NCBI GenBank assembly: GCA_012839235.1
Contig: DUNS01000169.1
Location: 1-37,176 of the forward strand
DNA from: Clostridiales bacterium
GTDB taxonomy: Bacteria > Bacillota > Clostridia > Lachnospirales > Lachnospiraceae
Direction of reading: 5' to 3'
DNA: 37,176 nt
A program made the translations under genes and the position numbers. The notes under the pieces were generated by a model. That model was not told where the DNA came from. It saw nothing but the letters and a program-made list of their open reading frames with translations, and did no database searches. Numbering within the stretch: position 1 is the stretch's first letter; each line of letters begins with the position of its first letter. This document shows positions 23,720 to 26,168 of this stretch, in pieces.

Positions 23720-24541
23720 ATGCTAATCAATTTACTCTTGCTAATTGGAGCTCTAGGAGCCCTATATCTGATTTTAATTATGCCAAAGCTGGGACGTAAT
23801 CCAGAAGCTAAGAAGATGGAAGGTTGGTTATATGCCCATCGTGGAGTACATAGTAATAAGAAAGGTCCCCCTGAGAATTCCATACCTGCCTTTTTAAAGG
23901 CTATAGAGAAAGGCTATGGAATAGAGCTAGATGTACAGTTGACAAAGGATGGGATACCAGTAGTATTCCATGACTATGATCTGCAAAGAGCCTGCGGTGT
24001 GGATCTTAAGGTGGCACATTTGACATATGGAGAGCTTAGAAGATATCGTTTATTTAATTCATCTGAGATGATACCATCTTTGGCGGAGGTTCTAGCTGTT
24101 GTTAATGGAAGGGTACCTTTAATAATAGAGCTAAAAATACCCTTTGATCCAAAGCCTTTATGTAGAAAGGTTTATTCAGTGCTACATAACTATAGGGGAT
24201 TTTACTCCATAGAATCCTTTAACCCAAGGGGACTAATTTGGTATAAAAAATATAAGCCCAATATACTTCGTGGCCAGTTATCTACGGATTTTGTGAAGGA
24301 TGAGATTGAGGGCAGTAGGATACAACATTTTATACTACAGAATCTTTTGTTAAACTTCCTTGCAAAACCGAATTATATAGCCTACAATCACAAATACAAG
24401 GAAGATTTCTCCTTTAAAATATGTAAGAAGATATTCCGTCCCATAACTGTAGCCTGGACGATCCGTTCCCAAGAGGAACTAGATAACTCCATCAATGATT
24501 TCGATCTATTCATCTTCGAAAATTTCGACCCCAAGATGTAG
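23720..24541 (+). CDS. Glycerophosphodiester phosphodiesterase, membrane-anchored
   Basis: 273 residues. One N-terminal hydrophobic helix (about 2-21), then the GDPD barrel: catalytic H-R-G-V-H (about 40-44), metal ligands E-N-S and E-L-D-V-Q, second catalytic His in F-H-D, and E-L-K later. It hydrolyses glycerophosphodiesters to glycerol-3-phosphate and an alcohol. Topology (active site in or out) is undecided. The SD GAAAGG is 13 nt from the ATG at 23720, with a minicistron ATG-GTT-GTG-TTA-TGC-TAA across the start. Two alternative TGTGAA/TTCACA hairpins sit just before the SD (23670-23101 region: 23670-23701). Confidence 0.88.
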   Translation: MLINLLLLIGALGALYLILIMPKLGRNPEAKKMEGWLYAHRGVHSNKKGPPENSIPAFLKAIEKGYGIELDVQLTKDGIPVVFHDYDLQRACGVDLKVAHLTYGELRRYRLFNSSEMIPSLAEVLAVVNGRVPLIIELKIPFDPKPLCRKVYSVLHNYRGFYSIESFNPRGLIWYKKYKPNILRGQLSTDFVKDEIEGSRIQHFILQNLLLNFLAKPNYIAYNHKYKEDFSFKICKKIFRPITVAWTIRSQEELDNSINDFDLFIFENFDPKM

Positions 24542-24561: not shown

Positions 24562-24606
24562 AAGCCCGTGTTTACAAAAGGTAACAACCTAAGTAAACAC
24601 GGGCTT
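24562..24606. terminator. Terminator shared by GDPD (+) and argG (-)
   Basis: AAGCCCGTGTTTAC (24562-24575) and its exact complement (24593-24606), loop with an inner AGGT/ACCT pairing. On the minus strand it is followed by GTTTTATTTTTTC, so it mainly serves argG, whose transcript would then carry the 24668-24892 element in its 3' UTR. The plus-strand tail is weaker. Confidence 0.85.
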
Positions 24607-24667
24607 TCTATAACCCAGAATCAATATTAAAGTGCTATCAGTGTTAAATGAACTCATAACATAAAAA

Positions 24668-24892
24668 ATGCTTTGACACTTTCTATCACTATATAAATGA
24701 AGTAAGGGGAAACATATTCTAACACGCAACTGTTTGAAGTCGTCGGTACTTAGAACACGTATTTTGTGTTCTTATGTACCGTTACGTACTTCAACCAAGC
24801 GCTGCTTGCAGCGCTTTGCGGAATGCGTGTTGCGAGTGGAATATGTTTCCCCTTACTTCTATAGTAACCTTTAATAGAAAGTGACAAAGCAT
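24668..24892. repeat. 225-bp multi-stem inverted-repeat element at the 3' end of argG
   Basis: Outer arms: ATGCTTTG (24668-24675)/CAAAGCAT (24885-24892); CACTTTCTAT (24677-24686)/ATAGAAAGTG (24874-24883); then 12-14 unpaired bases; a 21-bp perfect arm beginning GAAGTAAGGGG (24699-24719)/24839-24859; AACACGCA (24721-24728)/TGCGTGTT (24824-24831). Inside are two hairpins: TTGAAGT/ACTTCAA, GGTAC/GTACC and GAACAC/GTGTTC nested (24734-24794), and AAGCGCTG-CTTG-CAGCGCTT (24797-24816). No ORF of note. The last base of the right arm is part of the argG stop codon. A MITE-like element or a structured RNA are both possible. Confidence 0.85.
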
Positions 24893-26100
24893 CACTTCTC
24901 AATAGAGTTCATTTTCATAGCCCTTACTTTAGAAGCCAATCCAAAGAGATTGATAAATCCTTCCGCATCCTTATGATCATACAAGTCCCCAGTGGTAAAG
25001 GAAGCAATACTTTCATTGTATAATGAATAAGGAGATATGGTCCCTTGCTTTATAATATTTCCCTTGTAAAGCTTAAGCTTTACTTCGCCAGTTACGTACT
25101 CCTGAGTAGACTCAACAAATGCTTGACATGCTTCTCTTAAAGGAGTGAACCATTTGCCTTCATAAACTAGATCTGCAAACCTGTTAGCAACTTCCTTCTT
25201 TGCACTAAGAGTTTCCCTATCCAGGATTAGCTCCTCCAGTTGCATATGAGCCTCCATGAGAATGGTTCCACCTGGAGTTTCATAAATTCCCCTAGATTTC
25301 ATTCCAACTACACGGTTTTCTACAATATCTACTATACCGATACCGTGCTTGCCTCCAATAATGTTTAGCTCGCTTATTAAGTCTGCTGCTTTCATGGATT
25401 TACCATTAAGTGCAGTAGGAGCTCCCTTTTCAAAGGTAATACTTAGCTCTACACCCTCATCAGGAGCATTCTCAGGGGTAACAGATAGTACTAGAAGATG
25501 ATCATAGTTAGGAGAAATAGAGGGATCCTCTAGCTCTAAGCCTTCATGACTTATATGCCATAGGTTACGATCTCTAGAGTAGCTACTATCTGCTGAGAAT
25601 GGCAGGTCAATACCATGGCTTTTACAGTAGTCAATCTCTTCTTCTCTAGATGTGATATCCCATATTCTCCAAGGAGCAATTATCTTTAAATCAGGTGCTA
25701 GGGCTTTTATACCTAACTCAAAACGTACCTGATCATTTCCTTTACCAGTAGCACCATGACATATGGCTGTAGCCCCTTCTAGTCTTGCTATTTCAACTAA
25801 TCTTTTGGCAATGACAGGTCTTGCCATGGAAGTTCCCAGTAAATATTTATTTTCATATACAGCATTTGCTTTAATACAAGGAACAGCATACTCTTCAACG
25901 AATTCATCAATTACATTCTCTATGTATAGCTTTGTAGCTCCCGATAGCTTGGCTCTTTCCTCTAATCCATCAAGCTCGTTACCTTGACCTACATCGATAC
26001 ATACACAGACAACCTCAAAATCATAGTTTTCCTTCAACCAAGGTATAATCGCAGTGGTGTCAAGACCACCGGAATATGCAAGTATAACCTTTTCCTTCAT
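24892..26100 (-). CDS. argG: Argininosuccinate synthase
   Basis: 402 residues, normal length. ATP-pyrophosphatase P-loop A-Y-S-G-G-L-D-T-T (about 8-16), [15 protein letters not shown] citrulline/ATP block, [21 protein letters not shown], and the C-terminal [13 protein letters not shown]. It joins citrulline and aspartate using ATP. The start M-K-E-K-V (26098-26100) is chosen by family; a second in-frame ATG lies 4 codons upstream, immediately after AAAGG. It is divergent from argC and probably under ArgR control. Confidence 0.97.
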
Positions 26101-26168
26101 AATAGAAACCATCCTTTCTCAACAACCTTCTTTGAAATTGTATTATAATAATTTTTCTTATGTGGTTA

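What the first reader, a model, noticed from the sequence alone, without database searches (positions are those of the whole stretch)
24668..24892. 225-bp multi-stem inverted-repeat element fused to the argG stop codon
The arms pair over four blocks (8, 10, 21 and 8 bp) and enclose a nested three-part hairpin and a separate 8-bp GC-rich hairpin. The last base of the right arm is within the argG stop, and a terminator lies about 60 nt beyond, so the element would be in the argG 3' UTR. This is far more structure than a terminator needs. Either a MITE-like non-autonomous element with terminal inverted repeats ATGCTTTG, or a structured RNA. I saw no clear target-site duplication.
Basis: partly seen in the sequence, partly recalled or inferred. 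Interest (0 to 1): 0.7.

Follow-up and report, generated by a model that had tools for sequence, protein, structure and literature searches.

The report
Folded-core mobile repeat beside argG
The hairpin beside the argG gene is one of about fifty related copies of a short DNA repeat that looks transposed and keeps a base-paired core across one bacterial family; what moves it and what the core does are unknown.

Summary
Observation confirmed: arms of 8, 10, 21 and 8 bp enclose two hairpins at 24668-24892, folding about 15 SD better than shuffles. It is not single-copy: a covariance model of the tip finds 52 places at E<=1.2e-4 in this genome. Three subfamilies seen here share the tip but differ in arms and ends. 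The tip occurs in 64 of 150 genomes (one per genus) of the window's family, apparently Lachnospiraceae, and nearly only there in order, class and phylum samples. Among 35 full-length relatives with ~18-bp terminal inverted repeats, 7 have a perfect 7-bp direct repeat outside (shuffles: mean 0.23, maximum 3). I read it as a MITE-like non-autonomous element; the window copy lacks a recognisable right end at the argG stop. The tip covaries strongly (11 of 18 pairs). Evidence on the level of folding is mixed: few G.T pairs in the core favour DNA, but in one sample of arms the mismatch type follows the transcribed strand, favouring RNA or transcription-linked mutation. No mobilising enzyme was found; Y1 transposases do not co-occur. 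Unusual: one folded core shared by subfamilies with unrelated ends.

The parts
24562..24606 (.). 14-bp perfect inverted repeat, probably the terminator shared by the + gene ending at 24541 and argG; outside the element
   Evidence: I3: 24562-24575/24593-24606
24636..24652 (+). degraded left terminal inverted repeat (relatives: GATTTGAGTGTCAAAAG)
   Evidence: alignments to G010 copies
24646..24686 (+). left outer arm, pairs with 24874-24914 (holds the 8- and 10-bp blocks)
   Evidence: I1
24699..24719 (+). left 21-bp arm, pairs with 24839-24859
   Evidence: I2
24721..24728 (+). basal stem of the three-way tip, pairs with 24824-24831
   Evidence: (I18)
24735..24793 (+). conserved main hairpin of the tip (CGTCGGTACTTAG..GTATTTT..CTTATGTACCGTTACG)
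   Evidence: covariation on 69 sequences; R1 hit 24737-24829
24797..24816 (+). GC-rich hairpin at the place where most copies have the C-GNRA-G mini-hairpin; the longer form resembles copies in genome G010
24824..24831 (+). right strand of the basal stem
   Evidence: I18
24839..24859 (+). right 21-bp arm
   Evidence: I2
24874..24892 (+). right outer arm; its last base is in the argG stop codon; the right terminal repeat beyond is not recognisable
24892..26112 (-). argG (host gene; C-terminus -MNSIEK, no part of the element except possibly the stop)

Best explanation
A non-autonomous mobile DNA element of the MITE kind, about 270-300 bp when whole, with terminal inverted repeats, long imperfect palindromic arms and a conserved three-way tip (basal stem, a main hairpin with fixed bulges, a small GNRA hairpin). 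Shown: dispersed multi-copy family, terminal repeats, a 7-bp direct repeat in a fraction of young copies, and base-pairing kept by paired changes. Inferred: it was copied into new sites by a transposase supplied in trans that makes a 7-bp staggered cut; the tip is kept because the folded form is recognised during mobilisation. I lean to the folded DNA (hairpin or cruciform) for the core, at about 0.5; a contribution of folding in transcripts is open. The window copy is an old insertion at the 3' end of argG whose right terminal repeat is lost or unrecognisable; it now forms the argG 3' UTR and may supply part of the stop codon (inferred).
For: 52 places at E<=1.2e-4 (58 at E<=10) in this genome. 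Unrelated genes flank the copies. Terminal repeats and direct repeats: 7 of 35 retained copies (of 56 loci entered) with a perfect 7-bp repeat, shuffled mean 0.23, maximum 3 in 2000; lengths 4, 5, 6, 8 gave 0, 2, 3, 0 perfect. Young amplification: near-identical tips at many sites in G343. Covariation of the tip: 98.6% of 1242 cells paired, 221 double-change cells against 59.1 in shuffles, 11 of 18 pairs, slid versions at most 44.5% paired. In the variable core pairs G.T is 10 and A.C 6 of 759 cells, against 28 G.T and 0 A.C of 347 in 16 tRNA genes from the same loci (Fisher p 6e-8).
Against: No autonomous partner: Y1 transposases are no commoner in element-bearing genomes (33 of 64 against 53 of 86, p 0.24), and 9 DDE_Tnp_1 hits in three genomes showed no subfamily-A terminal repeats around them. 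28 of 35 copies lack a perfect 7-bp repeat; subfamilies B (0 of 53 rows) and C (0 of 21) and A copies in this genome (0 of 14) show none, though those rows include weak end matches. No occupied/empty site pair was found. Against DNA-only folding: in 65 tandem-gene copies from 118 pattern loci, arm mismatches were G.T 42/A.C 25 in sense and 36/53 in antisense copies (p 0.009, post hoc), and in four genomes tandem copies lie antisense 23 to 7 (p 0.005). Two measures are weak (pairs with double change: 10 of 500 shuffles reach it; further pair types: 161 of 500). tRNA control is biased, since ARAGORN seeks G.T-tolerant stems.
Confidence: 0.7

Rival explanations
1. A structured RNA: the copies act in transcripts as a 3' UTR or intergenic mRNA element, and base pairs are kept by selection on the RNA.
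For: Strong covariation; GNRA loops in 65 of 76 aligned tips; arm mismatches follow the transcribed strand in the contig sample (p 0.009); antisense excess in four genomes (23 to 7). bcr repeats of Bacillus cereus are often transcribed in UTRs (PMC3446304, passages).
Against: No orientation preference in the contig sample (31 sense, 34 antisense of 94 tips); G.T rare in the core; arms overall have more A.C (374) than G.T (288) on the GNRA strand; no Rfam match at gathering. The mismatch signal could come from transcription-linked cytosine deamination. Mismatches within a copy or subfamily are not independent.
Confidence: 0.22
2. No selection on structure: the arms stay complementary because one arm is copied onto the other by template switching within the palindrome.
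For: Arms differ between copies and subfamilies but remain complementary in each; G.T and A.C are both rare in the core.
Against: Fixed asymmetries survive in the main hairpin (TTAG against CTTAT, the YT bulge) and the GNRA loop is kept on one strand, which arm copying would erase. The tip is conserved while arms are not.
Confidence: 0.15
3. A REP/BIME-type repeat moved by a Y1 (RAYT) transposase.
For: Intergenic hairpins; close inverted pairs are all in the order minus-plus (15 to 0), like head-to-head REP dimers in PMC3733652 (passages).
Against: No co-occurrence with Y1_Tnp; 5 of 12 high-copy genomes have no Y1 hit; length 200-300 bp against 20-40 bp; no unpaired GTAG or CGTC tag (CGTC here is paired and varies); direct repeats at the ends.
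Confidence: 0.05
4. A host transcription terminator or 3'-end structure specific to argG.
For: Position at the argG stop; strong hairpin.
Against: A separate terminator-like stem lies beyond; the same tip lies beside dozens of other genes; the fuzzy scan of 29 other argG loci (some partial) showed no tip at the argG 3' end.
Confidence: 0.05

Closest known systems
MITEs of bacteria (kind; e.g. those in PMC6382973 and PMC4596501, seen in a search listing only)
   Same: short, non-coding, terminal inverted repeats, direct repeats beside some copies, dispersed
   Different: a folded tip kept by covariation across genera and across subfamilies with unrelated ends; no parent IS found
bcr1 and the bcr repeats of the Bacillus cereus group (PMC3446304, PMC2267715, passages; bcr1 original paper not held)
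   Same: MITE-like intergenic repeat able to fold, often in UTRs
   Different: other host group; sequence membership not tested here; the shared-core, different-ends arrangement is not described in the passages I saw
GTAG/CGTC-tagged REPs (PMC3733652, passages)
   Same: extragenic hairpins, head-to-head pairs, CGTC REPs lack a known dedicated transposase
   Different: REPs are 20-40 bp with an unpaired tag; here 200-300 bp, CGTC paired and variable, terminal repeats present; 'Firmicutes' and 'Clostridi' do not occur in that text

Membership tests
MITE | terminal inverted repeats | tested here: met
   met in 35 retained full-length relatives, whose selection required both ends; in the window only a degraded left end
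MITE | target-site duplication | tested here: met
   perfect 7-bp repeat in 7 of 35 subfamily-A copies of other genomes; none in subfamilies B and C or the A copies of this genome
MITE | short, no transposase gene | tested here: met
   most complete copies about 265-310 bp, range 212-423; no ORF of 100 aa or more lies between 24541 and 24892
MITE | related autonomous element with the same ends | tested here: inconclusive
   none seen: exact end pattern in 7 genomes, DDE_Tnp_1 in 3 genomes, Y1 in 150; other transposase families not searched
REP/BIME with RAYT | 20-40 bp hairpin with unpaired GTAG or CGTC tag | tested here: not met
   size; CGTC pairs and covaries
REP/BIME with RAYT | association with Y1 transposase | tested here: not met
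   33 of 64 against 53 of 86, p 0.24
Rfam structured RNA family | match at gathering score | tested here: not met
   0 matches in the window; only weak chance-level matches at E up to 10
bcr1 (B. cereus repeat) | sequence homology to bcr1 | not tested
   no bcr1 sequence was compared

The most novel reading that the evidence does not exclude
The folded core is the functional unit: a Lachnospiraceae enzyme not yet recognised binds this three-way DNA hairpin and mobilises it, so that MITE subfamilies with unrelated terminal repeats all had to carry or capture the same core. That would be a transposition or recombination system defined by a folded centre, not by its ends.
Probability: 0.2. Interest if true: 0.75.

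Novelty: new variant of a known kind. Interest (0 to 1): 0.5.

Why it matters
If right, a common group of gut, rumen and soil bacteria carries a repeat family, up to dozens of scored copies per genome, that is absent from Rfam 15 and that I did not find in eight searches of the held papers. It sits beside many genes and can change their 3' or 5' regions. A core conserved across MITE subfamilies with different ends makes a testable question: is the folded core, not the ends, what the mobilising machinery sees? The covariation also shows that strong compensatory change does not by itself prove an RNA.

Tried and rejected
Rejected: single-copy sequence; Rfam family; Y1/RAYT link; argG-specific terminator. 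The 5S rRNA expansion paper PMC7812874 (outline with abstract, passages) came up in a search and is unrelated as far as those passages show.

Corrected on the way: I read gene orientation in contig orientation, because loci from the genome search are not turned; the claim of a sense bias in my notebook entry 3 is withdrawn and replaced. My notes say 'about 390 copies' for G010; one search shows 392 first-look candidates, of which 19 were scored. My notes also say 'GNRA always'; the count is 65 of 76. I first took the low G.T count as strong proof of DNA-level folding, made when checking this report, shows mismatch types following transcription in one sample, so I lowered that sub-claim from about 0.65 to about 0.5 and raised the RNA rival from 0.15 to 0.22.

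Limits: alignments A1 and A2 were gathered with an exact pattern, so the invariant GTACTTAG and CTTATGTACC columns are partly selection; 149 tips gave 120 after filters and 76 after removing near-identical ones; A2 also required a GNRA-like loop, 70 found, one left out. In one search, 56 loci gave 35 rows: 18 had no end pair, 1 was at an edge, 2 were duplicates. Family-wide genome searches scored at most 33 or 34 candidates per genome, so copy numbers are floors. An inverted 70-bp flank at L228 near a contig end looks like an assembly artefact.

Full report
Observation. The four arm blocks are 24668-24675/24885-24892, 24677-24686/24874-24883, 24699-24719/24839-24859 and 24721-24728/24824-24831. 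Both strands fold far better than dinucleotide shuffles (z -14.6 and -15.4, 0 of 200 shuffles as good). The argG stop is at 24892-24894 on the minus strand and a 14-bp terminator-like stem lies at 24562-24606. No Rfam family matches at gathering score.

Copies in the same genome. BLASTN of 24660-24900 against the window's own assembly (2.83 Mb, 305 contigs) gave 40 matches at E<=1, including three rows from the query's own palindrome. The copies share a tip: a main hairpin CGTCGGTACTTAG-stem-GTATTTT-stem-CTTATGTACCGTTACG, a small hairpin usually of the form C-GNRA-G, and a basal stem. A covariance model (R1, 69 sequences) finds 58 places at E<=10, 52 of them at E<=1.2e-4. At least three subfamilies share the tip but have different arms and ends: A (GCAACTGTTT arms), B (CCCATGGTGAG arms, end TTACTATTCAGC) and C (GTGATTATTAATCC arms, end TGTTTATCACA). 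The window copy is of type A with a longer GC hairpin in place of the GNRA hairpin. Its best relatives are in genome G010 of the same genus (82% over query 33-201, E 2e-41), better than any other copy in its own genome (best 1.3e-28 over 92 nt).

Distribution. By BLASTN 10 of 41 genomes, all in the window's genus, match (own genome included). With R1, 64 of 150 genomes of the family, one per genus; 11 of 146 in the order, all 11 in the window's family; 6 of 196 in the class, 5 in the family and one weak hit elsewhere (30.5 bits); 2 of 199 in the phylum, both in the family. Six loci with R1 matches come from records titled Gastranaerophilales, Muribaculaceae or Muribaculum from one metagenome project (L061, L071, L082, L085, L117, L124); I suspect mis-binning but did not test it. 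A Bacillus and a Clostridiaceae record matched the pattern but not R1 (L103, L112). Of 24 viral stretches with the pattern, R1 accepts 2 (L176, L199).

Covariation. On 69 distinct tips, 98.6% of 1242 cells pair, 221 cells have changes on both sides (shuffled mean 59.1, none of 500 as high), 11 of 18 pairs have double changes (10 of 500 shuffles reach that), the covariation score is 0.479 against 0.144, and slid structures pair in at most 44.5% of cells. The count of further pair types is not exceptional (161 of 500 shuffles). The invariant columns are partly due to the search pattern. GNRA loops: 65 of 76 in alignment A1 and 38 of 43 tips of the own genome found by fuzzy pattern.

Mobility. 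In G010, G343 and G016 I collected 56 loci around copies or end motifs; 35 rows had both ends (GATTTGAGTGTCAAAAGC and its complement, up to 5 mismatches each, 150-450 bp apart). Seven of 35 have a perfect 7-bp direct repeat immediately outside (L346, L347, L351, L381, L392, L395, L397); shuffled pairings give 0.23 on average and 3 at most in 2000. Other lengths are not enriched to that degree. Three of the seven share CTATA at the target. The same test in subfamilies B and C and in A copies of the window's genome finds none of 53, 21 and 14 rows; these rows include weak end matches and the copies are more diverged. In G343 the tips at many sites are near-identical, and tandem and chimaeric copies occur. 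Full-length A elements are mostly 265-310 bp (range 212-423). In G270 a different end (AAACTGYAGSTTAAAG type) brackets about 216 bp around the same kind of tip.

What moves it. Y1_Tnp (PF01797) is found in 86 of 150 family genomes: 33 of the 64 with the element and 53 of the 86 without (p 0.24). Among 12 high-copy genomes 5 have no Y1 hit. Nine DDE_Tnp_1 matches in G010, G016 and G343 are not bracketed by the A ends; of three long end pairs found in held loci, two enclose ordinary genes and one (L036) was not inspected. So the mobilising enzyme is unknown.

RNA or DNA. For DNA: in the variable core pairs there are 10 G.T and 6 A.C of 759 cells, against 28 G.T and 0 A.C of 347 in 16 tRNA genes of the same loci, a biased but telling control; and in 94 tips of the contig sample tandem contexts are balanced, 31 sense and 34 antisense. 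For RNA, or for transcription-linked mutation: in that sample arm mismatches are 42 G.T/25 A.C in sense and 36/53 in antisense copies (p 0.009, post hoc); and in G000, G343, G270 and G010 together tandem copies are 7 sense and 23 antisense (p 0.005). In G000 the mismatch type does not differ by orientation. Over all 263 copies A.C (374) exceeds G.T (288), with groups differing in both directions. I therefore call the level of folding open, leaning to DNA for the core.

The argG site. Homology to G010 copies starts near 24636-24640 on the left and runs to about 24892-24906 on the right, where the terminal repeat cannot be recognised and argG coding begins. The argG protein ends -MNSIEK, against for example -MASLENK in L240. 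The fuzzy scan of 29 other argG loci in the genus, some partial, showed no tip at the argG 3' end; two loci gave a fuzzy match elsewhere (L243, L255), and the scan also gave one match in the own locus that R1 does not support, so it is not specific. Whether the element supplies the stop codon is inference.

Arrangement. Within 420 nt, tips occur as minus-plus pairs 15 times, never plus-minus, and once each in tandem on either strand. Some of these loci were chosen because they held pairs. REP elements of other bacteria are also found in head-to-head pairs (PMC3733652, passages).

Verdict. A MITE-like element family with a conserved folded core; new as far as my searches go; mechanism of mobilisation and role of the core unresolved.

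Noticed in passing
L415 about 936-2690 (G010:C13): An insertion sequence with a DDE_Tnp_1 transposase and ends CAATGTGGTCAACTTAAG sits inside the tip of a subfamily-A copy, with GGTACTTAGATC on both sides, as if it had been duplicated on insertion.
   Followed up: partly
L062, L069, L075, L095, L110, L116, L155, L160, L162, L311, L312, L314, L317, L318: Close pairs of tips are always in the order minus then plus (15 to 0), as if two cores formed one head-to-head unit.
   Followed up: partly
L285 (G343:C74): Three truncated copies in a head-to-tail array.
   Followed up: no
L277, L284 (G343): Chimaeras in which the left arm is replaced at ATGAAGACGTTGG by a different repeat with its own hairpin.
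   Followed up: no
L316 (G152:C10): Low-scoring tips lie after purE-like and purN-like genes inside what looks like a purine operon (names from translations seen, not from a family search).
   Followed up: no
L228 (G000:C17, near the contig end): About 70 bp of flank is repeated in inverted order on both sides of the element, probably a fold-back assembly artefact.
   Followed up: partly
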